From the NCBI GenBank assembly GCA_023665555.1, contig JAMPDR010000016.1, forward strand, positions 1 to 38,052: a DNA stretch of 38,052 nt, read 5' to 3'. The stretch is from Ruminococcus sp. (lineage in GTDB: Bacteria > Bacillota > Clostridia > Oscillospirales > Acutalibacteraceae). Under the pieces are notes generated by a model that was not told where the DNA came from, did not search any database, and was given only the letters and a program-made list of their open reading frames with translations. The first letter of the stretch is position 1, and each line of letters begins with the position of its first letter. The translations under genes and the position numbers were made by a program. Of the stretch, positions 11,834 to 38,052 are shown one piece after another.

Positions 11834-11844
11834 AAATTTTCATT

Positions 11845-12135: not shown

Positions 12136-12170
12136 AACTAACGAGCCTTGCGAATAGGAGTGGCAAATGT

Positions 12171-12383: not shown

Positions 12384-12390
12384 GTTCTGA

Positions 12391-12418
12391 TTTGCGAGAT
12401 ACTTTCTTCGCAAATTTT
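12391..12418 (+). terminator. Weak hairpin between HTH gene and 335-aa gene
   Basis: TTTGCGA (12391-12397) pairs with TCGCAAA (12408-12414) and is followed by TTTT. A possible restart promoter follows (TTCGCA 12407-12412, 17 bp, TATAGA 12430-12435). It might partly uncouple the two genes. Confidence 0.35.
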
Positions 12419-12460
12419 ACAAGTGTTGTTATAGAGAACAACAGAAAGGAACGAACTTTT

Positions 12461-13655: not shown

Positions 13656-13680
13656 TGATTATTTGGAAAGGAATCATGTT

Positions 13681-14325
13681 ATGAGTGATTTAATACCCTA
13701 TGGTGAGCAATTTGAAAAAATTGTAGATATAATCGAGTCTGCAAAAGAACGTGCATACCGGAAAGTGAATGAGGAATTGATTTTAATGTATCGTGATATA
13801 GGCGAATACATTAGCAACTGGGAATGTTTTTCTTGATAATTATGTGCTTGATTTTCTTGATGTGCCAGAAACAGTTTCTGAACGTGATTTGCAAAATCTA
13901 TTATACGAAATCTGAAAGATTTTATTCTTGAAATCGGTAAGGACTTCACCTTTATTGGAGAAGAGTATCGAGTGCAGGTCGGTAAACACGATTATTACAT
14001 TGATTTGCTGTTTTATCATAGAGGACTTTCCTGTCTTGTGGCATTTGAACTGAAAATCGGAGAGTTCAAGCCAGAGTATGTCGGTAAGATAAACCTTTAC
14101 TTGGAGGCACTTGACCGAGAAGTGAAAAAGGAAAACGAAAATCCGAGCGTTGGCGTTATCCTTTGTGCAAGCAAAGATGATGAGGTTGTCGAATTTGCTC
14201 TCAGTCGTAGTTTGTCCCCAACGATGGTTTCTGAATACAATCTGAAGTTGATTGATAAGAAACTGTTGCAGAAGAAATTAAAGGAATATGTTGAATTAGC
14301 GGGAACAGTTCCTGGCGAAGAGTAA
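13681..14325 (+). pseudogene. Decayed DUF1016 (YhcG-type) PD-(D/E)XK nuclease gene
   Basis: The 5' end reads as the N-terminal domain of a DUF1016 protein (MSDLIPYGEQFEKIVDIIES ... RDIGEYISNWE) up to a stop at about 13834. In the next frame it resumes with FLDNYVLDFLDVPETVSERDLQNLLYEI, then after another shift near 13915 with LKDFILEIGKDFTFIGEEYRVQVGKHDYYIDLLFYHR and continues to the stop at 14325. The last block is the nuclease core (YYIDLLFYHR ... VAFELKIGEF, D and E-x-K). The family is normally about 350 aa, so roughly 130-150 residues between the two domains are missing. One deletion and two frame changes make this a clear pseudogene. The intact family is a presumed Holliday-junction-like or defence nuclease. 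Confidence 0.85.
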
Positions 14326-17930: not shown

Positions 17931-19058
17931 GGCAACACCGCACAACCCTTGCAAATTATCAATCAAAGTGGTAAAATAAAAACATGAACAAACAAATGAC
18001 ATTATCAATGATAACCGACGAGCTGTCAAAAGCCAAAACAAACAAAAAAGAATTTCTGGAAAAAATGGAAAAACTCATACCATGGAAAGAGTGGATAGGG
18101 ATAATAAAGCCGGTTTACTACGAAGGAGAAGTCGGTAACAAGCCCTATGATCTTGAACTGATGCTGAGGATTTTCGTATTGCAAAATCTGTATGATTTGG
18201 CAGATATGAAGGCAATGTACGAGGTGATAGACAACCGTGCGTTTTCCGAATTTTGCGGAGTGGATTCCCCAAATCAAGTGCCAAACGGGGATACAATAGG
18301 AAGATTCAGAAATATACTTGAAAAAAATGAGATTCAAGAAAAACTGTTTCAAGAAGTATCTGATATTCTCATACAAAACGGACTGATATTAAAACGTGGA
18401 ACAATAGTTGATTCAACATTGATAGCTACGCCCTCATCAACCAAAAATGCAGAAAAGAAAAGGGATCCCGAGGCTCATTCGGTCAAAAAGGGAAATCAAT
18501 GGCATTTTGGATACAAAGCACATATCGGTGTTGATAAAGATACGGGATTAATCCACACAGTTAAGGTTACATCAGCTAACGAGCATGATGTTACGATAAC
18601 ATCACAGCTTCTTCACGGAGAGGAAGACGATGTGTACGGAGACAGCGGATATATAGGAGCAGATAAACGAAAAGAGGCAATTTTAAGGAAGAAATCGGGA
18701 AAGAAAATCAAATATAAAATCAATCGCAAGCCTTCACAAATCAAGAAATTATCACCAAGCGGACAATACTATGCTAAAAAAGCAGAACACAAAAAATCAT
18801 CGGTCAGAGCAAAGGTTGAACACGTTTTTGCGGTTGTTAAACGACAGTTGGGTTATCGACGAATAAGGTGTCGGGGTCTGAAGAAGCAGACCCAAAAATT
18901 GAGTATTATGTTTGCTTTGGCGAACTTAATTTTGGCTGACAGGGTTTCTCTGACAGCCTAATTGAGTTTGCCCTGCGAACGAAGTATGGGGAAGGTTTTG
19001 CTTATTTTGTTTTTTTCTATGGCAAGACTGCTATTGGAAGCTGTTGTGCGGTGTTGCC
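17931..19058 (+). mobile_element. Complete IS5-family insertion sequence, 1,128 bp
   Basis: It is bounded by perfect 16-bp terminal inverted repeats, GGCAACACCGCACAAC at 17931-17946 and its reverse complement at 19043-19058. A 4-bp target duplication TAAA lies outside at 17927-17930 and 19059-19062. The sole gene is an intact DDE transposase. Perfect ends, an intact gene and a host reading frame that is exactly restored on excision point to a recent insertion. Confidence 0.95.
17984..18961 (+). CDS. IS5-family DDE transposase
   Basis: A 325-aa transposase that cuts and rejoins the element's ends. An N-terminal helical DNA-binding domain (KPYDLELMLRIFVLQNLYDLADM) is followed by the RNase H-like catalytic domain: first Asp in GTIVDSTLIATPSS, second in DVYGDSGYIG, and the Glu in RAKVEHVFAVVKRQLGYRRIRCRG, with the Y-x-x-x-R-x-x-x-E-x-x-F-type signature of the IS5 group. 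Length and frame are intact, so it is probably active. It lies alone inside the 16-bp inverted repeats. Confidence 0.95.
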   Translation: MNKQMTLSMITDELSKAKTNKKEFLEKMEKLIPWKEWIGIIKPVYYEGEVGNKPYDLELMLRIFVLQNLYDLADMKAMYEVIDNRAFSEFCGVDSPNQVPNGDTIGRFRNILEKNEIQEKLFQEVSDILIQNGLILKRGTIVDSTLIATPSSTKNAEKKRDPEAHSVKKGNQWHFGYKAHIGVDKDTGLIHTVKVTSANEHDVTITSQLLHGEEDDVYGDSGYIGADKRKEAILRKKSGKKIKYKINRKPSQIKKLSPSGQYYAKKAEHKKSSVRAKVEHVFAVVKRQLGYRRIRCRGLKKQTQKLSIMFALANLILADRVSLTA

Positions 19059-24004: not shown

Positions 24005-24172
24005 GTATAAAAATAAATGTATCATTGGTGTACTTTTTTTGAATGAACAGCACAAACTAAATCAGAATAGCTGTTTATCGATTGAATTTTTATTCTGCAC
24101 ACATATTTTGCATGACTACAGCAGGGTATGAGTAACTATTTATTTGTAGTCGGAAAGGCATGGTATTCAACT

Positions 24173-24898
24173 ATGAATATTGGAATGATTTTTGCCGGCG
24201 GAACTGGAACAAGAATGAACACAAAGTCTTGCCCGAAACAGTTTTTGAAATTATACGGAAAAGAGATTATTATATACACACTGGAGCATTTCCAGCGTCA
24301 TAGCGATATTGATGCAATTGCTGTGGTTTGTCTTGAATCATGGATTCCGTATCTGGAGAATCTTATTAAAACATATAATCTCACCAAGGTTAAGTGGGTA
24401 GTACCCGGCGGAAACAGTGGTCAGCAATCAATCTATAACGGTCTTAAAGCTGCATATGACGGAACCGATAATAATGATGATGCTATCGTTCTCATTCATG
24501 ATGGTGTTCGACCGCTTATAAACGGTCAGCTGATTTCAGACTGTATTGAAAGCGTTAAGAAAAACGGTTCGGCAATTACAACTGTTCCTGCAATTGAAAC
24601 CATTGCCATTGTTGATGATGAGGGCGGAATTACCGGAACTGTAGATCGTTCGAAATGTATGATTGCAAGAGCACCGCAATGCTTTTATCTCGGTGAAATT
24701 ATGAAGAATCATTTCAAGGCCATTGATGAAGGCAGAAGTGACTTTATTGATTCTGCATCGCTTATGCAGAATTACGGTCACAGTCTGTTTGTTGTTCCCG
24801 GTCCGATGGAGAACATCAAAATAACAACTCCGTCTGATTATTATACATTTAAAGCATTTATTGAGCGTCAGAATGATGCTGATGTTTTCGGAATATGA
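24173..24898 (+). CDS. IspD/TarI-family cytidylyltransferase (probably polyol-phosphate)
   Basis: This enzyme transfers CMP from CTP to a sugar- or polyol-phosphate. It starts MNIGMIFAGGTGTRM and continues SCPKQFLKLYGKEIIIYTLEHF, the CTP-binding GGxGxRM-x(n)-PKQ motif, then HDGVRPLI and ARAPQCFYL of the IspD/TarI family. At 241 aa it is TarI-sized. ATG 24173 places the motif at the N-terminus as in the family; the longer frame from 24128 has its ATG directly against GCAGGGT with no spacing. Downstream genes are an SDR and a TagF-type transferase, so ribitol or a similar CDP-polyol is more likely than the isoprenoid step. CDP-ribitol itself is not proven. Confidence 0.85.
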   Translation: MNIGMIFAGGTGTRMNTKSCPKQFLKLYGKEIIIYTLEHFQRHSDIDAIAVVCLESWIPYLENLIKTYNLTKVKWVVPGGNSGQQSIYNGLKAAYDGTDNNDDAIVLIHDGVRPLINGQLISDCIESVKKNGSAITTVPAIETIAIVDDEGGITGTVDRSKCMIARAPQCFYLGEIMKNHFKAIDEGRSDFIDSASLMQNYGHSLFVVPGPMENIKITTPSDYYTFKAFIERQNDADVFGI

Positions 24899-24960
24899 GG
24901 AATCTCTGAGTTTAATTAAGGAGTTTCTGAGTACCGATTTATTTAATTTTTAAGAAAGGA

Positions 24961-26061
24961 ATGGTGCGGACTTTGTCCGTATCGACTATTGCTATGGCAT
25001 CTCAAATTGAAAAGCAAGATATAGCCGCTGTATGTGGAAATGAAATAATGAAATCACTTTACGGTAGCAAAATTCTCATAACAGGTGCAACAGGTTTGAT
25101 AGGCTCATTTTACGTTAAATGTATTTCAAACCTTAATAAAACTGATAATGCAAATATTACTTTATATTTGCTTGTCAGAAATCGTGAAAAGGCTGAAAAA
25201 CTTTTCGGCGGTCTTAATGATGAGAATATCAACTATGTTGTAAGTGACATTTGTGATTTGCAGGATGTTGATGCTGAACTTGATTATATTATTCACGGTG
25301 CAAGCATCACAACATCAAAAATGATGGTTACAAATCCTGTCGAAACAATTGATATTGCAATAAACGGAACAAAGAACATGCTTGAAATTGCCCGTAAGCA
25401 GAAAAATCTTAAAGCATTTTTGTATATGTCATCACTTGAAGTCTACGGTGTTACTGATCCGTCGCTGGAATACATCGGCGAAACTGATTACGGATATATC
25501 GATCAGCTTAATGTTCGTTCAAGCTATTCACTCGGCAAGCGTATGGTTGAATGTATCTGTGCTTCATATGCAAGTGAGTACAATGTTCCGACGAAGATTG
25601 CAAGACTTACACAAACTTTCGGTACAGGTGTTCAGTATAACGACGTTAGAGTTTTTGCGGATTTTTCACGCTGCGTAATTGAAAACCGCAATATAATTCT
25701 TCACACAAAGGGTGAAACAGTTCATAATTATTGCTATCTTTCAGATGCAGTTACAGGCTTGACCACTGTTCTTGTTAAGGGCAATGTCTGTGAGGCATAT
25801 AATGTTGCAAATGAATCAACCGACATATCTATTTATGATATGGCTCAGATGCTGTGTGATATGTATCCTGAGAAGAATTTGAGCGTTGTTGTTGAGGATA
25901 ACGGAAATGCCGCTAAACTCGGATATCCGCCTGCAAACAAAGCAAGACTTGCAACAAAGAAGATTGAAAGCCTCGGTTGGAGTGCAACCGTTGATCTTAA
26001 AGAGATGTTTAACAGATTAATTCAGGATATGATTTTTCAGACACAGGAAGGCGTGGAATAA
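24961..26061 (+). CDS. Extended SDR, NAD-dependent epimerase/dehydratase family
   Basis: A 366-aa extended short-chain dehydrogenase/reductase that acts on a nucleotide-linked sugar. The Rossmann motif GATGLIG is at 42-48, MSSLEVYG contributes the catalytic Ser, and YSLGK has Y189 and K193 as the YxxxK pair; R-L-T-Q-T-F-G-T-G and NYCYLSDAVTGL follow as in epimerases. ATG 24961 is only 1 bp from AAAGGA, so the true start could be GTG 24964 or TTG 24973; this does not affect the domain. In this operon it may make or alter the CDP- or NDP-sugar used by the downstream transferase, in place of the alcohol dehydrogenase TarJ. The exact substrate is unknown. Confidence 0.88.
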   Translation: MVRTLSVSTIAMASQIEKQDIAAVCGNEIMKSLYGSKILITGATGLIGSFYVKCISNLNKTDNANITLYLLVRNREKAEKLFGGLNDENINYVVSDICDLQDVDAELDYIIHGASITTSKMMVTNPVETIDIAINGTKNMLEIARKQKNLKAFLYMSSLEVYGVTDPSLEYIGETDYGYIDQLNVRSSYSLGKRMVECICASYASEYNVPTKIARLTQTFGTGVQYNDVRVFADFSRCVIENRNIILHTKGETVHNYCYLSDAVTGLTTVLVKGNVCEAYNVANESTDISIYDMAQMLCDMYPEKNLSVVVEDNGNAAKLGYPPANKARLATKKIESLGWSATVDLKEMFNRLIQDMIFQTQEGVE

Positions 26062-26063
26062 TA

Positions 26064-28988
26064 GTGAATAACAGTGTATTGTTTTCTGTTGTAGCATATA
26101 TTGACGACAAGGAAAAAATTGCTGAATTTATTAATTCAATCAGCACTGAAAATTGCATTGATAAGACTGAAGTAATTTTAGTTGCCGATGGAGAAAACAG
26201 CATTGAAATTGAACAGCAGCTTGATGAGTTGAAACAGGATTTTCCGTTTGTGCGCTTTGTTTCTGCTGACTCATCTTCAACTGCCGCCTGTTATAACGCA
26301 GGTATGAAATCAGCAATAGGTAAATGGATTCATTTTACCTATATTTCGGCAACTTATTCAGAATTTGCGCTGTCAAAAGTGCTTTCAAATGTTGAAGTTA
26401 CGTATAAATATGCTGTAAATGAGGAAGGCAAAGTTAATTGTGTAACCTGCCTGCCTTATGAGGCCGAGGGACACACATGTGTTGCGTGTATGTCACCGTA
26501 TGTAATGAATAGATTTGATACCCAAAATTCATTATACAGAATGCGTGCGAAAAAGGGAAATATGGTTGATTTGAATATCAACACAAACTCTGTTAACCTT
26601 GCACTGTTTTCTTTCATCATGAAAACTGATTTAGCTAAAGAAATCGGTTTCAATGAAGAGAATATATATGAAGCTGAACATGAGTTCCTTTTGCGTCTTT
26701 TTGTTAAAGAACCGATTTTCTACAATGTTAAAAAATGTCAGGTTCACATACCGATGAAATCGGAAACAGCTCTTTGCGATTTTCAATATGCGAGAGTAAA
26801 AGGTTGGTACACCGATGCTGTTAAGGCTATGCAAAAAGTTTTTGATGATGCTCAAAACATCCTTGGATATATACCCGTATATTTGCAGATTGCCGCATAT
26901 TATATTATTAATAATAAATACAGCACAAACTATTTTGAACGTGACACAGGAACACTTAACCGTGATGAAGCTTTTGAGTTTGATAATGAATGTGCTGAGA
27001 TTTTCCGACTTTTGGATGATAAGGTTATATTCTCAAATTATCCGATTTCTTATTCTGTTCCGCCGCAAATTCAAATGCATGTATACCGTTCAAAATACGG
27101 TCAGCTGAATAGTAGCAGCAATGATTTACTTCCGTATAAACCTGCTGTTTTTGCTGATAAGCTTTTCTACATTCCGAAGCAAAAAAATATTTCTGAATAT
27201 AATCTGACTGCGGATGAGAACGGAAATTATAATTTTGCAGATTTTGATGATTTGATTTTCCTTACCGATATATCAAAGCAAACTATCACAATGCAGGTTA
27301 TTAACTGCATAGACAATCAACTTGAATTTGATTGCAGACTCAGTGACGAATATTTTCACGGCTTTGAGCATAAGCTGATTGCTGTAATCGCTGATAATAA
27401 GTTCAATAACAACTGTATTGTGGATTCTTCTTATGAAGCGGTGGATATTGTGGATACTGATGTATATTCTGCTTACAAGTGTTTCGGTATCACACTCACA
27501 AAATTCAGAAGAGTACATCTTTCAATTGACCCGTCAAAACTTATCGGTAAGAAACTTGTGTTTGCTCTTGAATTTGATAACGTCAGATATTCATTTAATA
27601 TTAACTATATTCGTGCCTATTCAAGATTATCAGGCGGCAGATTCAACTATTGGATGTATGCAAAACATCAGATTGCATCGCCTGAGTCTAAAGCTATTAA
27701 ATTTAAAAAGTGCGGACCTTTGAAGCACTTCGGCTATGAAATGGCATTTATGGCTGATAACCTTCTTCGCGGAAAAACAATGTCTTTCAAAGACAGACTC
27801 TATTGCGTATTGCTCAGATTCTTGGCAGATATCTTATATCCGATTCACCGAAGAAAGCACATATGGATGACTTTTGATAAGCTTTATAAAGCAGGTGATA
27901 ACGGCGAGTATATGTTCAAATACTGCAACGAGAATCAGAAGAAAGTCAATTGCTATTATATCGTAAGTCCGGAGTCGCTGGATTACGAAAGACTTAAAAA
28001 GGCATACGGAAGAAAAATATTGGCTCATCAAAGCTTCCGACAGAGATTGCTTGCATTAAATGCAGAGGCCGTACTTGCAACCCATGCAACCGTTATGAGA
28101 TATTGCGGTTACAATAATACAATGCAGCCATTCTTTAAAGATAAGTTTAAATCAACAATTATTTGTATTCAGCATGGACTTACAATTCAGAAAATTGCGC
28201 AGTATCAGAGCAGAGTTTTTGATAATATCAGACTTTATACTCTTGCCTCAAAATATGAGTGGGAAAATATCTGCAATGAAACTTACGGATTTACTGACAA
28301 GCAGCTTAGACTTACAGGTTTACCGCGTTATGACGGATTGAAGAATAACGATCAACATCAGATTCTTATCACACCTACATGGCGACGCAACGTTGTAAAC
28401 GGCGGCATTGCATTCCAGAAAAAGACTCATAATGACTCTTTCAAGAACAGCACCTATTATAAGATCTATAACGGTCTTATAAATGACCAAAGACTGATTG
28501 ATTGCGCAAAAAAGAACGGATACAGACTTATTTATTTGTTGCATCCTGCAATGAGCGCACAAGCCGAGGACTATGAAACCAATGATTATGTTGAACTTGT
28601 TCAAGCAACAGGTGACATGAACTATGAGAAGATTCTCACTGAAAGTTCACTCATGCTCACTGACTATTCGGGTGTTCAGTTTGACTTTGCATATCAGCGT
28701 AAGGCTCTTGTCTACTATCATCCTGATACTTTGCCGCCGCATTACGATCCGGGCAAAATTGATTATGAAACTATGGGCTTTGGTCCGATTTGCAGAAACC
28801 ACGAGGAAATTGTTGCAACGCTTTGTGAATATATGAACAACAACTGCAAGAATCCGGAAGAATATATTCGCAGAGCAGATGATTTCTTTGCATTTGATGA
28901 TTTCAATAACTGCAAAAGAATATATGAGTATATAACTCAGTTTCTTGAAGAGGAATATAAGAGCAACAATAACAACATCAGATATTAA
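26064..28988 (+). CDS. Bifunctional GT2 glycosyltransferase / CDP-glycerol-type polymer transferase
   Basis: A 974-aa protein in three parts. Residues 1-about 330 are a GT-A family 2-like glycosyltransferase (VLFSVVAYIDDKEKIAEFIN; RFVSADSSSTAACYNAGMKSA). Residues about 330-580 form a beta-rich linker. The C-terminal 380 residues are a TagF/TarL-type polyol-phosphotransferase: HIWMTFDKLYKAGDNGEYMF, ICIQHGLTIQKIAQYQ, LRLTGLPRYD, ILITPTWRRN, and MLTDYSGVQFDFAYQRKALVYY, including the H-G and S-x-x-x-D family residues. The start is GTG at 26064, with AGGAAGG 12 bp upstream and only 2 bp after the SDR stop, so the genes are coupled. It probably works at the inner membrane face, building a glycosylated polyol-phosphate polymer. 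Confidence 0.9.
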   Translation: MNNSVLFSVVAYIDDKEKIAEFINSISTENCIDKTEVILVADGENSIEIEQQLDELKQDFPFVRFVSADSSSTAACYNAGMKSAIGKWIHFTYISATYSEFALSKVLSNVEVTYKYAVNEEGKVNCVTCLPYEAEGHTCVACMSPYVMNRFDTQNSLYRMRAKKGNMVDLNINTNSVNLALFSFIMKTDLAKEIGFNEENIYEAEHEFLLRLFVKEPIFYNVKKCQVHIPMKSETALCDFQYARVKGWYTDAVKAMQKVFDDAQNILGYIPVYLQIAAYYIINNKYSTNYFERDTGTLNRDEAFEFDNECAEIFRLLDDKVIFSNYPISYSVPPQIQMHVYRSKYGQLNSSSNDLLPYKPAVFADKLFYIPKQKNISEYNLTADENGNYNFADFDDLIFLTDISKQTITMQVINCIDNQLEFDCRLSDEYFHGFEHKLIAVIADNKFNNNCIVDSSYEAVDIVDTDVYSAYKCFGITLTKFRRVHLSIDPSKLIGKKLVFALEFDNVRYSFNINYIRAYSRLSGGRFNYWMYAKHQIASPESKAIKFKKCGPLKHFGYEMAFMADNLLRGKTMSFKDRLYCVLLRFLADILYPIHRRKHIWMTFDKLYKAGDNGEYMFKYCNENQKKVNCYYIVSPESLDYERLKKAYGRKILAHQSFRQRLLALNAEAVLATHATVMRYCGYNNTMQPFFKDKFKSTIICIQHGLTIQKIAQYQSRVFDNIRLYTLASKYEWENICNETYGFTDKQLRLTGLPRYDGLKNNDQHQILITPTWRRNVVNGGIAFQKKTHNDSFKNSTYYKIYNGLINDQRLIDCAKKNGYRLIYLLHPAMSAQAEDYETNDYVELVQATGDMNYEKILTESSLMLTDYSGVQFDFAYQRKALVYYHPDTLPPHYDPGKIDYETMGFGPICRNHEEIVATLCEYMNNNCKNPEEYIRRADDFFAFDDFNNCKRIYEYITQFLEEEYKSNNNNIRY

Positions 28989-29051: not shown

Positions 29052-30836
29052 TTATTTATATAGAGGACCGTAATTCTGACAAGCACGGAAATCTGCTGAT
29101 TGAGTATCCTCTGTGCCGAAAGCAGACCAAGCATGTGGACGGAAAATTTTTGATTCGTCAACATTGTGCATGTTAACAGGGATACGCAGCATGGATGCAA
29201 GTGTGATCAAATCAGCACCAACATGTCCGTAGACTGTTACACCGTGGTTAGCACCCCAGTTTGCCATAACGCTGTAAACATCCTTAAATGCGCCGTTTCC
29301 TGTGAGATTCGGAACGAACCATGTTGTCGGCCATGACGGATCGGTTCTCTTGTCGATTGTATTGTGGATTTCATCAGGCAAATCAACGGTATATCCCTCT
29401 GCAATCTGAAGAACAGGACCGATACCGTCAACAACATTCACTCTGAGCATCGTAACAGGCATCTGTGCACTACAGCGGAAGTGACTGGAGAATCCGCCGC
29501 CGCGGAAATATTCATAGTTTGCTCTGCACCAGTCGGTAGCGTCAAGGCAAGCTTTAATGTCTTTTTCCGTCATATCCCAGAAAGGTTTCATGCAGCCTTC
29601 ACCGTCAGCATTTTTAGATGCACCACTGCCGTCAAGTGCCGTTGCACCTGAATTGATAAGATGAATAAAGCCATTCTTTGCAACACCGTCAGGACGAACA
29701 CCTGTCACACGTTCGCATGCATCGGGACTCCAATATGTGCGAACATCATGGAAACAGGGAGCAGAGTGGGAAACAAGAGTTCCGAGCATCATTGAAACAC
29801 CGTTGAGTGTGTCGTTTTCAGTTGCGAACGGAGTGGGCATTTTTGCGCCGTTCCAGTCAAAGGTTGATGCCATAATAGCTTCTGTGAAGTCTGCGTTCGG
29901 GAGCCAGTCTGTCCAGTTGCGCTGACCTTGGAAACCGCCTGCAACAGCGTTTTTGCCGAGTGCTTCTTCATGCCAGCCCATTTCATCAAGCTTTTTGTTA
30001 CCGTAAAGAATGTCGCGCATAACCATAGTCATTTTGGTTACAAATTCCCAGTCTTTTTCGGGCGGTACAACCTTAGATTTTCTGATGATTTCGGGCAGAT
30101 CTTTGCCTTCATTAAGGTCGAAGCCTTCTTTGCAGTTCTCCTTGACCCATGCGAGAGCCTTCTCATATTCATCGTGGTCGTATATTTCGAGCGTTATTCT
30201 GCGAACGATTTCTGTCATGTCAACCCATTCAGCACGGATGCCGAAATATTTCTGGAACATGTCCGCATTGCAATATGAGCCAGCGATACCCATTGCAACA
30301 CCGCCGAGGTTAACATATGCCTTGTTTTTCATCCAGCCTACTGCAACAGCAGCCTTGGCGAAACGAAGAATTTTTTCGGCAACATCGGCAGGTACTTCTG
30401 TGTCTGTCATGTCTTGAACATCATGGCCGTAGATTGAGAATGCCGGCAACCCTTTCTGCGCAAATGCAGCCATAACAGCGGCAAGATAAACAGCACCCGG
30501 ACGCTCTGTTCCGTTAAAACCCCATACTGCCTTAATTGTGTTAGGATCCATGTCAAAAGTTTCCGAACCGTAGCACCAGCACGGTGTTACTGACAGGGTA
30601 GCAACAACATTTTCGGTTGAAAATTGTTCTGCACATTTGGCTGCTTCAGCGCCGCCGCCGATGGTGGTATTGCTGATTACGCATTGAACAGGAGTTCCGT
30701 CAGGATAGCGAAGATTTGATTCAATGAGATTCTTTGCTGCGATAGCCATGTTCATTGTTTGAACTTCAAGGCTTTCGCGAACACCGCCCCATCTGCCGTC
30801 GATAGTTGGACGTATGCCAATTTTAGGATAATTCAT
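29052..30836 (-). CDS. fucI: L-fucose isomerase FucI
   Basis: It converts L-fucose to L-fuculose with Mn2+. The 594-aa length and sequence match the family closely: [21 protein letters not shown] at the start, [57 protein letters not shown], and the metal and substrate residues within [19 protein letters not shown] and the C-terminal domain. GAGGT precedes ATG 30836, 10 bp after the kinase stop. It is the last gene of the operon fucA-fucU-kinase-fucI. No fucose transporter is in the window. Confidence 0.97.
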
Positions 30837-30846
30837 AAATTTTACC

Positions 30847-32280
30847 TCACTTATTATTTATTGTTGTTTTCTGCAAGACCGTGCAGAATGTTTTATATGC
30901 TTTCAGCCATGTTTCATTGTTGGTTGGAAAATATGTTTTAACACTTTCCTGCGTTTTTATGAGCGCTCTGCCTTCGTCAATGTTATTGATATCACCGAGT
31001 GCGATAAGCTGAAGCAAAATGTTGCCAAGTGCTGTTGCTTCGCATGGACCTGCAACAACAGGAAAACCAAGGCTGTCAGCTGTCATTTGACAAAGGAAAC
31101 CGTCTTTAGTTCCGCCTCCGAGCAGGTGCAGAACTTCGAAGTTTTTGTCTGTGTTTTCTTCAATCTGCTCAATTGCAAATTTATATTTCATTGCAAGGCT
31201 TTCATATATGCAACGTACCAAAGCACCGTCACTTTGAGGAACAGTCTGATTTGTTCTCTCACAGTAATTGCGAATTTTTTCAGGCATTTTGCCTGCTGTT
31301 GCAAACTCAGGTGCATCAGGATCAATAAAACAACAAAAAGGTTTCTCTTTTTTTGCAAGCTGTTCCATATCGTTGAATGTATACGCTTTTCCTTCTGCTT
31401 TGAAGTTACGGCGTATCTCCTGGATGAGCCATAAACCGCTGATATTTTTCAGATAGTCAACCTTTCCGTTTGCACCGAATTCATTTGAAAGTTCGTCTGC
31501 CATACTTTTTTCGGTGAGTACTGCACTTTCAAGTTCGCACCCGATAAGCGACCATGTTCCGCAGGAAAGAAAAGCACTGCACTTATCTTTATCAGCCGGC
31601 ATTGCAGCAATCGCACATTGGGTGTCATGTCCTGCAACCTTTATAACCTTGATTCCGTTATATTCACCGGCAATTACAGAACTGTCAACAAGTTCTTGAA
31701 GAATACTTGCATCAATGCCGTTTATATCGGCAATTTCATGTGCCCATGCATTTTTGTTAAAATCATACATCTGCGATGTTGATGCAATAGTTCTTTCTGC
31801 TGATTTGTTGCCGCAAAGCGCCCAAACAAAAAGGTCAGGCATGAAAAGCAGCGTTTTACCGCTTTTCTTATCTTCTGCAACAAGCTGAAAAAGCGTATTG
31901 ATAGGCATAATCTGATTACCTGTTGTTTCATATAAATCGCAAGCGGATATTTTTTCAAACACTTTTTCAGGTACATTGTTTGTGCGTGTATCACGGTAAT
32001 TCACGGGCAAACCGATAAGATTATCGTTTTCATCAAGCAGGCCATAGTCAACACCCCAAGTGTCAAAAGCAAGTGAATCAACTTTGCCGCACATGTCAAT
32101 TGCCTTTTTTACCTCACCTATAAGATAAGGAAAATTCCAGCAGAGATGACCGTTGTCATCGTGAGTCGGTATATTCTCAAACCTGTGCACTTCGCTGTAG
32201 GTGAGTTTCTTACCGTCAAATTCGGCTTTGATCGCTCTTCCTGTTGAAGCACCGAAATCAAATGCAAGAACTTTACTCAA
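30847..32280 (-). CDS. FGGY-family kinase, L-fuculokinase in context (RhaB-like sequence)
   Basis: It phosphorylates L-fuculose to L-fuculose 1-phosphate within the operon. The sequence is a full FGGY sugar kinase of 477 aa: ATPase motif [12 protein letters not shown], substrate region [18 protein letters not shown] and [15 protein letters not shown] and [22 protein letters not shown]. It is more like rhamnulokinase (RhaB) than enterobacterial FucK. Since all neighbours are fucose genes, fuculose is the likely substrate, although the two 6-deoxyketoses are related and both might be used. The start is TTG at 32280, overlapping the fucU stop (TTGA), with GGGAG about 10 bp upstream; this implies translational coupling. 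I withhold the symbol fucK because of the RhaB-like sequence. Confidence 0.88.
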
Positions 32281-32717
32281 TGGGTGACAACTCCCTTCTT
32301 TAAAAGTACATTGGCATATATTGCAGTTTCGCCCGTGGCGATTATGAGATAGGCATTTTTTGCCCTTTCATAAAATGCAAAGCGCTCAGTCATTTCAACC
32401 TCGTGATGATCAGGTTCATATTTGCTCAGTATTTCTTCATATGTACCCCATATCTCAGGAGTAGGGCAGTTGTCGCCTTTAACCACCTCCATGTAAGCTA
32501 CAGGTTTCTCAGTGTATCTGTCAAGTGGGATAAGGCTCAGTATAGCGTCCAAAATTTCAGCTGTTCCGTGGCCGTCTGCGCGAATAACAACGGAGTTTTT
32601 TCCAACGCTTTCACACGGAAAATTGCCGTCTGCAATAACAAGTTCGTCACCGTGACCCATTTCACAAAGTGCTTTCAAAAGCTCCGGAGAGATGATGGGA
32701 GGAATTCCTTTAAGCAT
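32277..32717 (-). CDS. fucU: L-fucose mutarotase FucU (RbsD/FucU family)
   Basis: It interconverts alpha- and beta-L-fucopyranose to feed the isomerase. At 146 aa it carries family features: LKGIPPIISPELLKALCEMGHGDELVIADGNFP (catalytic H and D region), IRADGHGTAEILDAILSLIPLD, and the C-terminal ERFAFYERAKNAYLIIATGE-x-AIYAN. The ATG at 32717 follows AAGGTGA and lies 9 bp after the fucA stop; its end overlaps the kinase start by 4 bp. Second gene of the operon. Confidence 0.95.
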   Translation of the reverse strand: MLKGIPPIISPELLKALCEMGHGDELVIADGNFPCESVGKNSVVIRADGHGTAEILDAILSLIPLDRYTEKPVAYMEVVKGDNCPTPEIWGTYEEILSKYEPDHHEVEMTERFAFYERAKNAYLIIATGETAIYANVLLKKGVVTH

Positions 32718-32726
32718 AATTTCACC

Positions 32727-33437
32727 TTAATCTTTCTTGTGTAAAATCGGATCGTCGGGATTAAAAGTCTTATAGCCGGGATGTCTGCCGGTTACTCTGT
32801 AATAGCCTCTCAAATCGATCAGTTTCTGAATGTTCTCTCTGCTGATGTCATGGCTGCCGCCGAGAATAACAGCATTGATTGTTATTTTTGCCCAAAGTTC
32901 AAGGCTTTCCATTCTGTAAAATGCAGTTACAACGTCACTGCCGACTGCAAGCGCACCGTGATTCTCAAGCAGCATAACATCGTGTTCTTCGAGATACGGC
33001 TCGATTGCATCAGGAACTTCTGATGTAGACGGTGTACCGTACGGTGTGAGTGGAACTGCACCCATAACAGCAACATCCTCAATCATGTTATACATGTCCA
33101 TTGCCTTGTGTGCAACCGCAAATCCTGTTGCTCCCGGCGGATGTGCATGAATGACGCTCATAACATCATCACGTTTGTCATAGCAGCGAAGATGCATCTT
33201 GATTTCACTTGAAGGACGAAGTCCCTCAGCGGCTTCAAGCACATTTCCCTTACTGTCGATTCTTATAAGTTTTTCGGGTGTAATGAATGATTTGCTCATT
33301 CCGGTCGGTGTTGCAAGAATTGTGCCATCGTCAAGTTTAACACTGACATTGCCATCGTTTGCCGCAACCCAACCAAGCTGCCACATTTTATGACAAATGT
33401 CACAGATAAGTTCTTTTTGTGTTTCTATATTGCTCAT
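32727..33437 (-). CDS. fucA: L-fuculose-phosphate aldolase (class II aldolase family)
   Basis: It splits L-fuculose 1-phosphate into dihydroxyacetone phosphate and L-lactaldehyde using Zn2+. The 236-aa protein shows AANDGNVSVKLDDGTILATPTGMSK (phosphate site), PSSEIKMHLRCYDKR with the catalytic Glu, the zinc ligands in VIHAHPPGATGFA, and LLENHGALAVG with the third His. AAAGGAGC precedes ATG 33437. First gene of the operon behind the promoter at 33509-33537. Sequence alone cannot wholly exclude rhamnulose-phosphate aldolase, but size and context favour FucA. No lactaldehyde reductase (fucO) is adjacent. Confidence 0.92.
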   Translation of the reverse strand: MSNIETQKELICDICHKMWQLGWVAANDGNVSVKLDDGTILATPTGMSKSFITPEKLIRIDSKGNVLEAAEGLRPSSEIKMHLRCYDKRDDVMSVIHAHPPGATGFAVAHKAMDMYNMIEDVAVMGAVPLTPYGTPSTSEVPDAIEPYLEEHDVMLLENHGALAVGSDVVTAFYRMESLELWAKITINAVILGGSHDISRENIQKLIDLRGYYRVTGRHPGYKTFNPDDPILHKKD

Positions 33438-33654: not shown

Positions 33655-34197
33655 TTAAGCCATAAATGCGCAGTCAACATCTTTTCCAAGGTCGCAGGTA
33701 TAAACCCACTCAACTATGTCGCCGTCTTTCAGCTTGTATTTTGAACAACCGTAGTTCGGATATTTCCCGTTCACACGATACATCCAACCGGAAAGCGGAC
33801 CGCAGGAAAACTCATAGAGATAGTGGATACCTTGAATATATACACTGCCGAATTTGTTTACGTCAGCACCTTGGTATTCCATTTGAATTTTGTTGTAACG
33901 CACTGCTCTGTCAAGAATATCAAATACGGTATCACCCTCACGAAGAACATATTCGGTTTCAGAAAGTATGATGCCGTCATTCGGAACATATTCCTCGGAT
34001 TGCAAAACAGGGTCAAGATTGCTGTAATTTTCAAGTACGGTGTCACATCGTATGCTGATTTTAACAGTTTCACTGTCCTCGGTAATGTCGTCAATATGCG
34101 TTAGATAATATTCATCTACCGATTGAAAATTAGTACCGCTTATAACAAGAACAATGGCAAGTATAACAGCAAAAATAACAAGCAAATCTTTTTTCAT
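33655..34197 (-). CDS. Exported DUF4430 (transcobalamin C-terminal-like) protein
   Basis: A 180-aa protein with an N-terminal signal or anchor helix (LLVIFAVILAIVLVISG) and one DUF4430 domain (about 75-175): LREGDTVFDILDRAVRYNKIQMEYQG ... GIHYLYEFSCGPLSGWMYRVNGKYPNYGCSKYKLKDGDIVEWVYTCDLG. The GWMYxVNGxxPxxG-x-YxLxDGDxVEWxYT block is diagnostic. DUF4430 corresponds to the beta domain of vertebrate intrinsic factor and transcobalamin, which closes over bound cobalamin. The start ATGA overlaps the stop of the preceding alpha-barrel gene, so it is the last gene of a coupled three-gene operon. Lacking a cell-wall motif, it is either membrane-tethered or released. Confidence 0.85.
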   Translation of the reverse strand: MKKDLLVIFAVILAIVLVISGTNFQSVDEYYLTHIDDITEDSETVKISIRCDTVLENYSNLDPVLQSEEYVPNDGIILSETEYVLREGDTVFDILDRAVRYNKIQMEYQGADVNKFGSVYIQGIHYLYEFSCGPLSGWMYRVNGKYPNYGCSKYKLKDGDIVEWVYTCDLGKDVDCAFMA

Positions 34198-36083
34198 GAA
34201 TCATCACTCATTTCATCGGCATATTCGTTGGCAAGCGCATCCATTTCAAGCTGTTTTCTGTTACGACGATTTTTAACGCGATTAACTACAATTGTTAGCG
34301 CTATAGCGACGGCACACAAAAGTATAACAGTAATTGCAATTGCTCGAAGTTCATTATCTATCTTCGTTTTGGTTTTTATCACATCTTCATAGCGTTCTAT
34401 TTTACCTTTGTCATAATCGCTCAGAGCATGATAACGTTTAACGATGTTGTCAACGGTTTTCTTGTCCTTGACTGAGATTGATTCAAACGGATAGAGTTTA
34501 TCGAGAATTTCTTCATTTATGCTGTCAATTTCATTTTGTATGGAGGCAATTTCATTTTTTGCAGCTGTTAGTTTTTCAACATATTTGTCTTTTCCGTTAA
34601 AGTCAGGGGATAGATTCAGTTTTTCAAGTAGTGTTGTTACCTTAACATAGTGTTCTCCCGTCAGCTTTTCCGGTAAGGAATCAACTTCTTGTTTGTCTTT
34701 ATCGGCAAAAGTGACGCTGTTTGTTTCCGATTCATCGTCAGCAGGACTTTCAATGATTTTTGTTTCAACTGAAATCTTTTCTGTATTAATGCTTAAACTT
34801 TTTGCCTTGTCTGCAAGAAGATAATAATTATACACATATGAGCGTTCATTTTCGGGAATTGTGAAATATCGAACCAATAAATTTTCAACCTCAGCATTGA
34901 CGGATGTTTCAGTAAGATTGGATATATCATCATTCAAAACTGAAATACGCTTTTTTAATGCTGTGCTTTGCTCCTCGCGGAAATCATACAGTGTCCGCAT
35001 ATTTTGCTCTCTTCGCCAAAGTGCCGCCATGGTATAAAGAACCTGTTCCCCTGCCATGGTATTAGATTTGTCGGGTAGGGCAGTAGGATTATCAGAATCA
35101 TATGAAAATGAATGTATAAATCCGCCGTCTTTCATCTGATAACGCAAAATTCCGTCAAGCAGTGTATTTCCTTTTTTTATAAAACGTTCATCTGCGAATG
35201 GATCGATACCTAAACAGCAAAGTGCAACCACAACCTGACATGTACTTTCAACGTTTTGAGTTCCCCAACTTTCATAGTCACCTGTGTCAAGCTGAATTTC
35301 CGAAAGACAACTTATTGCTTCGTTCACCACTTGACGAACCGTTTTTGAAGTTTTTGCGGAATCCGATTTTTGAATATATGTATAGATTCTTTCACTGTTA
35401 TAGTATGGCGAAAGAGCCTGCACCGCCATGGCTGTGATGTCGGGGTCTGCCGCATCTCCGCTCAAAGCAAAGCCGCCGTCAGTAAGTTGTTGGCTCAATA
35501 TTTCGCAGATGATGTCATCACGGCTGTAATATGCATCTTTCGGAATTTCATATCTCATGCTGTCAAGCGCAATCAAACCCCATATCCATCCGTTTATGCC
35601 TTGTCTGCCAAGCGGTGTGACATTACCGCGGTTGTATGTTCCGTCGGCAATCAAGTTGATTGCTTGTCCGCTTTCATCTTTGCCGAAACTTGTCGGATTT
35701 CCGCCCGATGCCAAAATCGCAAGTGAAATTCGATGCCATTCCGTGGCTTTTGCCGCACTCAATTTGCCTTGCTGACGGTAACGTTCTTCAACTTGGTCTT
35801 TCAGAACTGCAAGATAACCATCATAATTATCATCAATTCCGAGTCTTCCAAGACCTATAGGATACCAGTCGCCGGCAGTGGTTCCTGCCTGTTCGAGAAA
35901 TGTGCTGTTAATCAAAAAGTCATCTGTTGAACCGTTATCTGACTTTTTCCATTTTACAATATCATTGGCGATTGATAAAAATCTGTCCGTATCATTCAGT
36001 GCGTTTATCGGTATTATCGCCAAAGAAAGCATAACGCATAAGACAAGTAAAATGCATATAAGTTTTTTTAGTTTATTCATCAT
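34194..36083 (-). CDS. Surface alpha/alpha-barrel (prenyltransferase/squalene oxidase-repeat) protein
   Basis: A 629-aa exported protein. It has a signal peptide (LKKLICILLVLCVMLSLAIIPINA), then about 330 residues of alpha/alpha-toroid repeats (GINGWIWGLIALDSM; QQLTDGGFALSGDAADPDITAMAVQALSPYY; QNVESTCQVVVALCCLGIDPF; YQMKDGGFIHSF; TMAGEQVLYTMAALWR). A long charged coiled-coil stalk (about 400-580) follows, then a C-terminal membrane helix (AIAITVILLCAVAIALTIVV) and a basic tail. The toroid resembles the alpha domain of intrinsic factor/transcobalamin more than a soluble terpene cyclase, since it is exported and anchored and lacks a DxDD or polyprenyl-binding motif. Overlaps 11 bp with the upstream gene and 4 bp with the downstream gene. 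Confidence 0.85.
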   Translation of the reverse strand: MMNKLKKLICILLVLCVMLSLAIIPINALNDTDRFLSIANDIVKWKKSDNGSTDDFLINSTFLEQAGTTAGDWYPIGLGRLGIDDNYDGYLAVLKDQVEERYRQQGKLSAAKATEWHRISLAILASGGNPTSFGKDESGQAINLIADGTYNRGNVTPLGRQGINGWIWGLIALDSMRYEIPKDAYYSRDDIICEILSQQLTDGGFALSGDAADPDITAMAVQALSPYYNSERIYTYIQKSDSAKTSKTVRQVVNEAISCLSEIQLDTGDYESWGTQNVESTCQVVVALCCLGIDPFADERFIKKGNTLLDGILRYQMKDGGFIHSFSYDSDNPTALPDKSNTMAGEQVLYTMAALWRREQNMRTLYDFREEQSTALKKRISVLNDDISNLTETSVNAEVENLLVRYFTIPENERSYVYNYYLLADKAKSLSINTEKISVETKIIESPADDESETNSVTFADKDKQEVDSLPEKLTGEHYVKVTTLLEKLNLSPDFNGKDKYVEKLTAAKNEIASIQNEIDSINEEILDKLYPFESISVKDKKTVDNIVKRYHALSDYDKGKIERYEDVIKTKTKIDNELRAIAITVILLCAVAIALTIVVNRVKNRRNRKQLEMDALANEYADEMSDDS

Positions 36084-37812
36084 TTTGTTCCTTGTGTTGA
36101 TTTTTATTTTTCATATAAATGCATCCTGTTGCACATGTCAGAGCGATGAACACAAAAGCAGCTATGAGTACTGTGCCGTTATGATTATCAGATGGCTGTA
36201 CCGCTGATTCAGCTATTACAGGACTTATTTCGTCTGTGCTTGTATAGAGTGGGGCAACTTCATCAGTTAATGCAATTTGTTCCAATGCGGTGCTTTGTGT
36301 ATCAGTTTCGGAAACTGCAACTGTTGTTTCGGTTTCGTCTGACTGCGCGGATTCAATAGTTTTGATTGATGTCTTTGCTTCATCAGATATTGTTTGCTGA
36401 ATCACCGAACTTGCACTTTGCGGCTGTGAAACGGCACTACTGCTTTTTTCTGTCTTTACGGAAGTTGTGTATTGATATATTGAAGTTGTCACCGTGACAT
36501 TTTTATTTGTTTTTTCAGTTACCGCATCGACCATGCTTGTTGATGCCGACGTTTTTGTTGATTGAGTCTTTCGTGTTGTTGTTACAGCTTTTGTCTGGCT
36601 GGTAATTTTAGCAGGTGCCGTGGTATGCGGTACAGCTTTTTTTGTTGTTGTAACCGCTTTTGTTGTTGTGATAACACGGTCATCAGAGGGATTGTTCAGC
36701 GCTGAGTTAAGCGATTTTACTGCACTGTCAACAGTTGACTGAGATGCATCAAGCGTTTTAGCCGCAATGATAGCATTTTGATATGCTTGTTTGACGTTGG
36801 ACCTTGATGAATATGCGGACGAGCGTGTACGGCTGATTGCTTTTGTGAGTGCATCTTTATTGGCTGTTTGATAATATCCCGAATTCGGCTGATTGCCTAC
36901 ATCAGGAATTTTTGAACCCATTGCGCTGAATCCGCCGATGTCCGCACCGTAGCCGAGTGTAAACTGAACCCGAACCACGTCACCGTCAGATAAATAAGTA
37001 TCCGCAAAGCTGACGTTAGGAAAGCTGTTGTTGACAGTATACATCCAACCCGAACCGTTGGTAATTACAAATTCACCGAGGTAGCCATTCCAATTTTTCT
37101 CATAATCATTAGGATCGAAAAAAGTCATGGTTTTATTTAGTTGAGAAACAAGATTTGGCGGAATTGAAACATTCAGATTCATCTTTTTGGGATTTTTCGC
37201 GGTTCCGCTCTTTTGATATCCGTTATATTTTTGCGCTGATGATGTTCCGTCAGCTATATATCCGAGATAAAATGACTGCTTGAGTGTACCGCCGTAATAC
37301 CCGATAAGACCGTTTTCGTGCAGCAGGTGTATCAGCTGTTCTGCGGAAGTTTCGCCTTCATAGATATCCATTTCCGTTGGATAAATGAGATAACCGCACC
37401 CAATTGTAAAAACTTCAACACTCCATGTTGCTTTACCGATAGATTCGCCGTTTTTGGCTTTTTCATATGTGATGTTATATGTAAGCTGTTTCTTTCTTCC
37501 ACCATCGGATGAAGCAGAGATGATGACAATGTTTTTTCCTTCCTTGGTAAAGTTAAGAATATAGCTTGATTTTTCATCATCATCCCATATCGGCGACAGA
37601 GTTGCTCCGTTGAAAGTGACAGTAGCTTTGATTTTTTTACCGGCACTGTTTCTTGCTCGAACCTCAAATGTTTTTTTGCTGCCTTTTTGCACTGTGTTAT
37701 CAGTCAGTGTTGTTGTGATGGATGGTCCTGATGCGGCGCTTGCCGAAAAGCAGGGGAGTAACATCGTCAAAATCAGCAAAATACTGAGGGCACAGGCGAT
37801 TTTTTTCTTCAT
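36073..37812 (-). CDS. Membrane-anchored surface protein with DUF4430 domain and Thr/Ser-rich stalk
   Basis: A 579-aa protein in this order: signal peptide (MKKKIACALSILLILTMLLPCFSASA), an Ig/bacterial-Ig-like beta domain (SITTTLTDNTVQKGSKKTFEVRARN, about 30-120), a DUF4430 domain (about 130-300, ending GSGWMYTVNNSFPNVSFADTYLSDGDVVRVQFTLGYG), a helical FIVAR-like segment (NKDALTKAISRTRSSAY ... SALNNPS), a low-complexity Thr/Ser/Lys stalk of about 170 residues (TTTKAVTTTKK repeats) and a C-terminal membrane helix (TVLIAAFVFIALTCATGCIYM). ATG 37812 is preferred to the longer frame from 37866, because AGAGGT is 8-10 bp upstream and the signal peptide begins there. The stalk suits display through the cell wall. 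First gene of the operon. Confidence 0.88.
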   Translation of the reverse strand: MKKKIACALSILLILTMLLPCFSASAASGPSITTTLTDNTVQKGSKKTFEVRARNSAGKKIKATVTFNGATLSPIWDDDEKSSYILNFTKEGKNIVIISASSDGGRKKQLTYNITYEKAKNGESIGKATWSVEVFTIGCGYLIYPTEMDIYEGETSAEQLIHLLHENGLIGYYGGTLKQSFYLGYIADGTSSAQKYNGYQKSGTAKNPKKMNLNVSIPPNLVSQLNKTMTFFDPNDYEKNWNGYLGEFVITNGSGWMYTVNNSFPNVSFADTYLSDGDVVRVQFTLGYGADIGGFSAMGSKIPDVGNQPNSGYYQTANKDALTKAISRTRSSAYSSRSNVKQAYQNAIIAAKTLDASQSTVDSAVKSLNSALNNPSDDRVITTTKAVTTTKKAVPHTTAPAKITSQTKAVTTTRKTQSTKTSASTSMVDAVTEKTNKNVTVTTSIYQYTTSVKTEKSSSAVSQPQSASSVIQQTISDEAKTSIKTIESAQSDETETTVAVSETDTQSTALEQIALTDEVAPLYTSTDEISPVIAESAVQPSDNHNGTVLIAAFVFIALTCATGCIYMKNKNQHKEQNDE

Positions 37813-37882: not shown

Positions 37883-38052
37883 TTATTTCACTTTAACAGT
37901 CTTAACAGTACTGAAACTGCTGTTAATAGTTTTTCCGCTGACTGTTTTGTATGCTCTGACCTTGAAGTAGTACGTTGTGCCTTTCTTTAGGCTCTTTTTT
38001 GTGTACTTCACTGTGCCGTTTTTCTTGATTGTGGTTACTTTCTTGTAGCCGC
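37883..38052 (-). CDS. C-terminal end of a fibronectin type III-domain protein (partial)
   Basis: The minus-strand frame is open from the window edge to a TAA at 37883-37885 (55 residues): GYKKVTTIKKNGTVKYTKKSLKKGTTYYFKVRAYKTVSGK ... SSFSTVKTVKVK. The L-x-x-G-T-x-Y-x-F-K-V-R-A-Y segment is the end of a fibronectin type III domain, usual at the end of secreted carbohydrate-active or adhesive proteins in gut clostridia. The rest lies outside the window. It ends 70 bp before the ATG of the DUF4430 anchor protein and may share its transcript. Confidence 0.85.
   Translation of the reverse strand, partial: GYKKVTTIKKNGTVKYTKKSLKKGTTYYFKVRAYKTVSGKTINSSFSTVKTVKVK

What the first reader, a model, noticed from the sequence alone, without database searches (positions are those of the whole stretch)
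33655..37812. Split intrinsic factor-like surface apparatus: alpha-barrel and two DUF4430 proteins in one coupled operon
Three overlapping genes encode exported proteins. Two carry DUF4430 (related to the beta domain of vertebrate cobalamin carriers) and the middle one an exported alpha/alpha toroid with stalk and membrane anchor (like the alpha domain). In animals both domains sit on one chain and clamp cobalamin between them. Here they are on separate, translationally coupled, surface-held chains, one on a long Thr/Ser stalk. This suggests a cell-surface corrinoid (or other small ligand) capture device in a Gram-positive bacterium.
Basis: partly seen in the sequence, partly recalled or inferred. 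Interest (0 to 1): 0.72.

Follow-up and report, generated by a model that had tools for sequence, protein, structure and literature searches.

The report
Bacterial split vitamin B12 surface clamp
Three linked genes in a gut-type bacterium appear to make, as separate membrane-held proteins, the two halves of the clamp that animal vitamin B12 carriers have on one chain, and in many relatives the same genes sit behind a B12-sensing RNA switch and beside a B12-type importer.

Summary
In detail: three overlapping minus-strand genes (g1 DUF4430 on a Thr/Ser stalk; g2 alpha/alpha toroid; g3 DUF4430), each with hydrophobic anchors. The contig ends upstream, so the operon is cut. The genome's only above-threshold cobalamin riboswitch stands about 460 bases before another toroid-bearing ORF that runs off another contig. 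In 40 toroid-bearing family genomes, 25 of 36 riboswitch matches (22 of 32 over Rfam's cut-off) have a toroid within 10 kb downstream, same strand. Of 80 loci found by g3 similarity, 72 have a toroid, 69 EcfT and 54 EcfS; the two S components tested are closest to ECF-CbrT (6FNP). Relatives fuse toroid and DUF4430 through two membrane segments, or carry both on one exported chain, as transcobalamin does. CbiD was not found in 40 of 40 genomes. Corrinoid capture for an ECF importer is therefore very likely. The alpha-beta cleft could not be modelled (structure prediction was off), and no profile reached the solved animal carriers. The idea is not new: Burroughs et al. 2007 proposed B12 scavenging by bacterial toroid/SLBB proteins beside CbiO/CbiQ. 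Added here: the separate toroid chain, riboswitch, CbrT link and membrane-span fusions.

The parts
36073..37812 (-). g1: exported stalked DUF4430 (transcobalamin beta-like) protein with C-terminal membrane anchor, 579 aa from the ATG
   Evidence: DUF4430 27.6 bits against a cut-off of 23.8
36958..37065 (-). DUF4430 match inside g1 (second half of the domain)
36217..36684 (-). Thr/Ser-rich stalk of g1 (approximate limits, by eye)
   Evidence: read from the translation
36118..36174 (-). C-terminal hydrophobic anchor of g1
   Evidence: hydropathy, 547-565
34194..36083 (-). g2: exported alpha/alpha-toroid protein, helical stalk, C-terminal membrane anchor with basic tail, 629 aa
34968..35987 (-). 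alpha/alpha toroid of g2 (residues about 33-372)
   Evidence: alignments A2 and A5; profile match to solved squalene-hopene-cyclase-type proteins
34284..34340 (-). C-terminal hydrophobic anchor of g2
   Evidence: 582-600
33655..34197 (-). g3: signal-anchored DUF4430 (beta) protein, 180 aa
   Evidence: (69 bits)
33697..33936 (-). DUF4430 domain of g3
34132..34188 (-). N-terminal signal anchor of g3
   Evidence: 4-22
37883..38052 (-). 3' end of an upstream ORF with a surface-protein (Fn3-like, by eye) tail, cut by the contig end; possibly the end of the second toroid protein whose start is on contig C41 (inferred)
   Evidence: contig C28 is 38052 bases; no exact overlap of the two contig ends

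Best explanation
The three genes encode the extracellular part of a corrinoid (vitamin B12 family) uptake system of the transcobalamin-like kind, with the clamp divided over separate membrane-held chains. Proposed working: the stalked DUF4430 protein g1, and probably the large surface protein upstream, catch corrinoids in or near the wall. g3 holds its DUF4430 beta domain at the membrane through an N-terminal anchor and is the core binding subunit that hands the ligand to a CbrT-type S component. g2 holds its alpha/alpha toroid next to g3 through a C-terminal anchor and closes over the ligand as the lid, as the alpha domain of transcobalamin does. A cobalamin riboswitch turns the genes down when coenzyme B12 is plentiful, and EcfT-EcfA-EcfS imports the ligand. 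Shown by tools: gene order, domains, riboswitch linkage, the ECF subunits and their CbrT similarity, natural fusions, no CbiD match. Inferred: corrinoid binding, alpha-beta closure in trans, hand-over to CbrT, the repressing sense of the switch, and that contig C41's operon continues into this window.
For: Riboswitch: RF00174 at C41:27152-27355 (53.2 bits, cut-off 31.5), about 460 bases before an ORF whose toroid is 47% identical to g2 over 381 residues. In 40 toroid-bearing genomes there are 36 RF00174 matches in 28 genomes, four of them below Rfam's cut-off; 25 of 36 (22 of the 32 over the cut-off) have a toroid match within 10 kb downstream on the same strand and 0 lie within 10 kb in another orientation (48 toroid places used, 8 secondary matches in the same genes or genomes left out). 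In 80 loci fetched by g3 similarity, a home-made riboswitch model gives 56 hits at E up to 1, 55 on the operon strand. Transporter: of the 80 loci, 72 have a toroid ORF, 69 EcfT, 66 an EcfA-like ATPase, 54 EcfS on the same strand. The L037 EcfS has 6fnp chain A as best solved relative, E 1.4e-11; the own-genome EcfS gives 4.8e-12; 6FNP is ECF-CbrT (PMC5997447; that chain A is CbrT is my inference). The own genome holds EcfT/EcfA at C22 behind a weaker riboswitch (28.4 bits, below cut-off) and EcfS at C33. Fusions: L052, L097 and L115 join toroid and DUF4430 through two adjacent hydrophobic segments, matching g2's C-terminal plus g3's N-terminal anchor; L114 (463 aa) and L133 (539 aa) have both on one predicted exported chain. 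No CbiD match in 40 of 40; a B12-binding protein, methionine-synthase-like by eye, is present. In animals the two domains sandwich one B12 (PMC1796856), and the TC beta domain alone binds cobalamin at the same site (PMC5599065), so a split clamp is physically reasonable.
Against: No structure or complex could be computed. Profiles of the toroid, of DUF4430 and of the fusions do not reach the solved animal carriers at E up to 10, and g2 does not match Pfam's animal cobalamin-binding family. Family libraries do not name the S component as a B12 protein: Pfam gives a riboflavin-type S family (46.4 bits, over the cut-off), NCBIfam only a sub-threshold folate-type S family (26.5 bits, cut-off 60). 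In this genome the ECF genes are not in the operon; a fucose operon follows g3. The riboswitch is on another contig, and the contig ends do not overlap. RF00174 also occurs in 25 of 40 toroid-less genomes of the family, so co-occurrence alone means little. Two same-genus genomes gave no g2 match. The third DUF4430 protein of this genome shows no corrinoid neighbour.
Confidence: 0.83

Rival explanations
1. Same surface capture device, but each chain works on its own: the DUF4430 proteins bind and relay the corrinoid, and the toroid is an independent binder or a spacer rather than a lid.
For: Of 12 riboswitch regions fetched from toroid-less genomes, 6 have DUF4430 beside ECF genes without any toroid match (two of them, L147 and L158, by weak scores of 20 and 18 bits), so beta may serve CbrT-type importers alone. 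TC beta alone binds cobalamin (PMC5599065).
Against: Toroid in 72 of 80 loci found by g3 similarity, one-chain alpha-beta proteins with a short linker (L114, L133), and alpha/beta distances still correlated after removing EcfT and EcfS (partial r 0.35, 45 loci).
Confidence: 0.2
2. The ligand is another small molecule (haem, another tetrapyrrole, a cobalt or nickel complex, another vitamin) and the riboswitch merely co-regulates it.
For: DUF4430 (SLBB) members are thought to bind diverse ligands (reviewer comment and author reply in PMC1796856). CbiQ-type EcfT is shared with cobalt importers, and Pfam files the S component with riboflavin-type S proteins.
Against: The S components tested are closest to the CbrT structure among solved chains. 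The only riboswitch class over threshold in the 36 loci scanned with Rfam is RF00174.
Confidence: 0.06
3. An adhesin or structural surface complex; the toroid and DUF4430 domains act as protein- or glycan-binding modules.
For: Stalks, Ig-like and SLH domains in g1-like and large upstream proteins and relatives (a FIVAR-like stretch in g1 read by eye).
Against: Riboswitch linkage and ECF neighbours in many genera.
Confidence: 0.04
4. g2 is an exported terpenoid cyclase or prenyltransferase-like enzyme.
For: Profile similarity to squalene-hopene cyclases; Prenyltrans and SQHop_cyclase_C each match 47 of 64 toroid rows at E up to 10, best 2e-9 and 1.3e-7; in L097 both are over their cut-offs.
Against: g2 itself stays below the family cut-off; predicted exported location; the neighbours identified concern B12 uptake.
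Confidence: 0.02

Closest known systems
[quoted passage not shown] 2007, PMC1796856)
   Same: Same domain (DUF4430/SLBB) with an alpha/alpha toroid, surface location, stand-alone as well as multidomain SLBB proteins, a second paralogous SLBB protein in the operon, CbiO/CbiQ neighbours, usual lack of B12 synthesis, proposed B12 scavenging (passages read).
   Different: In the passages read the toroid is described only as fused to SLBB; here it is on its own, translationally coupled and oppositely anchored chain. The word riboswitch does not occur in that text; CbrT is not named in the passages read. Figures and supplements were not seen.
Animal transcobalamin, intrinsic factor and haptocorrin
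   Same: Toroid plus DUF4430 domain; DUF4430 is the C-terminal domain of TCN proteins (PMC4350170, passage).
   Different: Animals have both domains on one chain (PMC1796856); here two or more membrane-held chains next to an importer. No direct sequence match to the solved animal proteins.
ECF-CbrT / CbrTUV vitamin B12 transporter (6FNP, PMC5997447)
   Same: EcfT-EcfA-EcfS in relatives and dispersed in this genome; the two S components tested are most similar to 6fnp chain A.
   Different: No extracellular capture protein is mentioned in the passages read on the Lactobacillus delbrueckii system.
Bacteroides surface B12 lipoproteins (PMC6143338; title and start of abstract in a search listing only)
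   Same: Surface capture of corrinoids for an importer in gut bacteria.
   Different: BtuG is a beta-propeller on an outer-membrane TonB-dependent system (recalled); no shared domain (recalled).

Membership tests
Transcobalamin-like SLBB (DUF4430) proteins of Gram-positive bacteria | DUF4430 over Pfam's cut-off | tested here: met
   g3 69 bits, g1 27.6 bits, cut-off 23.8
Transcobalamin-like SLBB (DUF4430) proteins of Gram-positive bacteria | Exported or surface-held | tested here: met
   hydrophobic signal and anchor segments by hydropathy; prediction only
Transcobalamin-like SLBB (DUF4430) proteins of Gram-positive bacteria | Associated alpha/alpha toroid | tested here: met
   g2 toroid; fused forms in relatives
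Transcobalamin-like SLBB (DUF4430) proteins of Gram-positive bacteria | CbiO/CbiQ (EcfA/EcfT) genes in the operon | tested here: inconclusive
   met in relatives (69 of 80 loci with EcfT); in this genome EcfT/EcfA are on contig C22 and EcfS on C33
Animal intrinsic factor / transcobalamin / haptocorrin | Toroid and beta domain on one chain | tested here: not met
   separate genes in the window; fusions only in relatives
Animal intrinsic factor / transcobalamin / haptocorrin | Detectable sequence similarity of the toroid to the animal carriers | tested here: not met
   no solved animal carrier at E up to 10; the animal family is not among the three Pfam families listed for g2 at E up to 10
Animal intrinsic factor / transcobalamin / haptocorrin | Cobalamin sandwiched between the two domains | not testable with these tools
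   structure prediction switched off
CbrT-type ECF vitamin B12 transporter | S component homologous to CbrT | tested here: met
   own-genome EcfS against 6fnp_A, E 4.8e-12, next hit 4hzu_S at 0.015; but curated families give riboflavin-type or sub-threshold folate-type names to the L037 relative
CbrT-type ECF vitamin B12 transporter | Corrinoid transport | not testable with these tools
   needs an uptake assay
Cobalamin riboswitch (RF00174) regulon | Aptamer over the gathering score upstream of the genes | tested here: inconclusive
   met on contig C41 for the second toroid ORF and in relatives; none within the window, whose operon start is missing
Squalene-hopene cyclase / prenyltransferase enzymes | Family model over its cut-off | tested here: not met
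   g2 SQHop_cyclase_C 15.5 bits, cut-off 26.1; one relative, L097, is over the cut-offs

The most novel reading that the evidence does not exclude
A two-chain, membrane-anchored transcobalamin. The beta chain (g3) docks on the CbrT-type S component and receives corrinoid, and the toroid chain (g2) closes on it from a neighbouring anchor. The series beta-only, split alpha/beta, alpha-double-membrane-span-beta and exported one-chain alpha-beta, all seen in bacterial genomes here, would then record the steps by which the soluble one-chain clamp used by animals arose. The beta-only operons (6 of 12 regions, two of them weak), the fusions and the partial distance correlations (beta-S 0.41, alpha-beta 0.35, alpha-S -0.06) fit this but do not prove it.
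Probability: 0.45. Interest if true: 0.72.

Novelty: new variant of a known kind. Interest (0 to 1): 0.52.

Why it matters
[quoted passage not shown] A riboswitch-linked surface clamp beside a CbrT-type importer is a concrete candidate in many Clostridia and Bacillales; in the 40 family genomes tested no CbiD was found. It would also be a living bacterial counterpart of intrinsic factor with the two halves separable for study. My searches showed no experimental test of the 2007 proposal; they cover only open-licence papers, and most results were seen as listings.

Tried and rejected
Reaching the animal carriers by sequence: two single window proteins and four alignments against solved structures gave nothing relevant or cyclases. 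NCBIfam gave no name for the three window proteins. A riboswitch or other Rfam family inside the window: none. Terminators and promoters around the genes: not above shuffled background. Joining of contigs C41 and C28 by shared end sequence: no exact overlap of 10 or more bases, so adjacency rests on gene order in relatives only (a large toroid protein before g1-g2-g3 in L057, L058 and, with one extra DUF4430 gene between, L061). The third DUF4430 gene of the genome (C36) was considered part of the system and set aside: lipoprotein-like by eye, no corrinoid neighbour seen. Co-occurrence of riboswitch and toroid per genome as evidence: rejected, because toroid-less genomes have the riboswitch about as often (25 of 40 against 28 of 40); only the linkage counts. 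The chance estimate (about 1e-55) assumes random placement and independent genomes and is only a guide.
Full report
1. What is in the window. The window is the whole of contig C28 (38052 bases) of a draft genome of 2.6 Mb in 120 contigs. On the minus strand, entering from the right edge, lie the 3' end of an ORF cut by the contig end (stop at 37883), then g1 (37812..36073), g2 (36083..34194) and g3 (34197..33655). g1/g2 overlap by 11 bases and g2/g3 by 4. DUF4430 is over its cut-off in g3 (69 bits) and g1 (27.6 bits). g2 alone has only sub-threshold cyclase matches, but 15 relatives align over the toroid. A profile of 64 toroid rows (three genes entered twice, from two collections) matches solved proteins of the squalene-hopene-cyclase kind (best 7xq4, E 2.2e-12; 1gsz, E 3.5e-11). 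Hydropathy puts a signal and a C-terminal anchor on g1 and g2 and a single N-terminal anchor on g3. A fucose operon (aldolase, FucU, FGGY kinase, fucose isomerase) follows on the same strand.

2. The missing start of the operon. The genome has one cobalamin riboswitch over threshold (C41:27152-27355, 53.2 bits; aligned). It stands about 460 bases before a 1430-residue open frame that runs off the end of C41 and carries a toroid 47% identical to g2 over 381 residues; the toroid match itself begins 1.7 kb after the riboswitch. In L057 and L058 a large toroid protein stands just before g1-g2-g3, and in L061 too, with one more DUF4430 gene between. It is therefore likely, but not shown, that C41 runs into C28; the ends share no exact overlap of 10 bases or more.

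3. Relatives in the same family. Of 200 genomes drawn from the family, 56 have a g2 match, the own genome included. In 40 of these 56, RF00174 gives 36 matches in 28 genomes, four of them below Rfam's cut-off (31, 28.4, 23.7 and 23.3 bits). For 25 of the 36 (22 of the 32 over the cut-off) a toroid match lies within 10 kb downstream on the same strand; none lies within 10 kb in another orientation. As a control, 25 of 40 toroid-less genomes also have the riboswitch. Of 12 such regions fetched, 6 have a DUF4430 match next to EcfT and/or EcfS without a toroid match (L147 and L158 only weakly, 20 and 18 bits), and 6 have no DUF4430 match.

4. Named relatives. On the g3 strand, 72 of 80 have a toroid ORF, 69 EcfT, 66 an EcfA-like ATPase (a few may be other ABC proteins), 54 EcfS, and 49 have all four; many loci are cut by contig ends. 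A riboswitch model built from 14 of the family's elements (only 5 base pairs, so mostly sequence) gives 56 hits at E up to 1 in 45 of 80 loci, 55 on the g3 strand; two of these, L056 and L077, are elements the model was built from. By my count of the table, 48 of the 55 lie upstream of g3. Rfam at its own threshold was run on 36 of the 80 loci, 30 of them loci that the model had missed. It found RF00174 in 12 of 36, always on the g3 strand, six of them among the 30. So 51 of 80 have one by either method.

5. The transporter. In L037 the genes after g3 are a CbiQ-type EcfT, a double-ABC EcfA and an ECF S component, which Pfam places with riboflavin-type S proteins and NCBIfam, below its cut-off, with folate-type ones. 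Its best solved relative is 6fnp chain A (E 1.4e-11). 6FNP is ECF-CbrT, a transporter shown to carry cobalamin and cobinamide (PMC5997447, passages). In the window's own genome EcfT/EcfA lie at C22 behind a weaker, below-threshold riboswitch (28.4 bits) and EcfS at C33, again closest to 6fnp (E 4.8e-12).

6. Fusions and split. L052, L097 and L115 carry toroid and DUF4430 on one chain with two adjacent hydrophobic segments between them. That is the topology expected from joining g2's C-terminal anchor to g3's N-terminal anchor, and it would place both domains outside. L114:17688-19079 (463 aa) and L133:780-2399 (539 aa) have both domains on one chain with only an N-terminal hydrophobic segment. 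DUF4430 is over the cut-off in the five fusions scanned with Pfam (L114, L133, L115, L073, L097). L072, L073, L080, L084 and L094 carry the pair inside larger proteins.

7. Physiology. CbiD, needed for the anaerobic corrin ring pathway, gave no match in 40 of 40 toroid-bearing draft genomes, while the control search rings in 6 of 14 known genomes. All 10 genomes tested have B12-binding-domain proteins, in this genome one that looks like a methionine synthase part by eye. The picture is that of corrinoid users that must import.

8. Mechanism. In transcobalamin the toroid and the beta domain sandwich one B12 (PMC1796856), and the beta domain alone binds it at the same site (PMC5599065, figure legends seen). 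The likely order here is beta first, toroid as lid, hand-over to CbrT. Distances between operons, with the other subunits partialled out, link beta to S (0.41), alpha to beta (0.35), alpha to T (0.32) and beta to T (0.19) but not alpha to S (-0.06) (45 loci). This agrees with beta in the middle, though such correlations also arise from shared descent. None of this shows binding.

9. What is known. Burroughs et al. 2007 (PMC1796856; abstract, outline, passages and section 11 read) described the transcobalamin-like SLBB clade in Gram-positive bacteria, stand-alone and multidomain forms, toroid fusions, paralogous surface SLBB proteins, CbiO/CbiQ neighbours and the usual absence of B12 synthesis. 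They proposed B12 scavenging and transfer of the one-chain form to animals. The word riboswitch is not in that text. Other papers found by my searches do not test it, as far as the listings and the passages read show. The finding is therefore a well-supported variant (toroid on its own, oppositely anchored chain, riboswitch linkage, CbrT-type importer, membrane-span fusions) of a kind predicted in 2007.

10. Limits. No structure, complex or binding evidence; riboswitch and transporter lie on other contigs in this genome; the 80 loci were selected by g3 similarity; relatives are not independent; stalk limits and Fn3/FIVAR-like names are by eye.

Noticed in passing
window 2921-10901: Type I restriction-modification set: HsdM (N6_Mtase), HsdS, HsdR.
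   Followed up: partly
window 17984-18961: DDE transposase; further transposase-like short ORFs at 14547-15676 (by eye).
   Followed up: no
window 24128-28988: IspD-like cytidylyltransferase, epimerase/dehydratase and a large CDP-glycerol glycerophosphotransferase in a row, resembling a teichoic-acid-type cluster.
   Followed up: no
window 29052-33437: L-fucose operon right behind g3 on the same strand. Fucose breakdown can yield propanediol, whose dehydratase uses B12 in some bacteria (recalled); no such gene was sought.
   Followed up: no
L139:5905-6345 (G000 contig C36): Third DUF4430 protein of the genome, small and lipoprotein-like by eye, without ECF or riboswitch neighbours seen; DUF4430 alone is not a sign of corrinoid uptake.
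   Followed up: partly
L128:2536-2736 and 2806-2993; G038:C17:8318-8508 (-) and 8589-8796 (+): Two cobalamin riboswitches in tandem (home-made model), and in another genome two head to head 80 bases apart (Rfam).
   Followed up: no
L084:2-2243 and 10413-13990: Two EcfA/EcfS sets around the same toroid-DUF4430 genes, suggesting two related importers side by side.
   Followed up: no
L147:3050-4049, L156:4527-8513, L157:8190-12152: Operons without a toroid match: DUF4430 directly beside EcfS or EcfT-A-S near a cobalamin riboswitch, one in the window's own genus (L147, weak score).
   Followed up: partly
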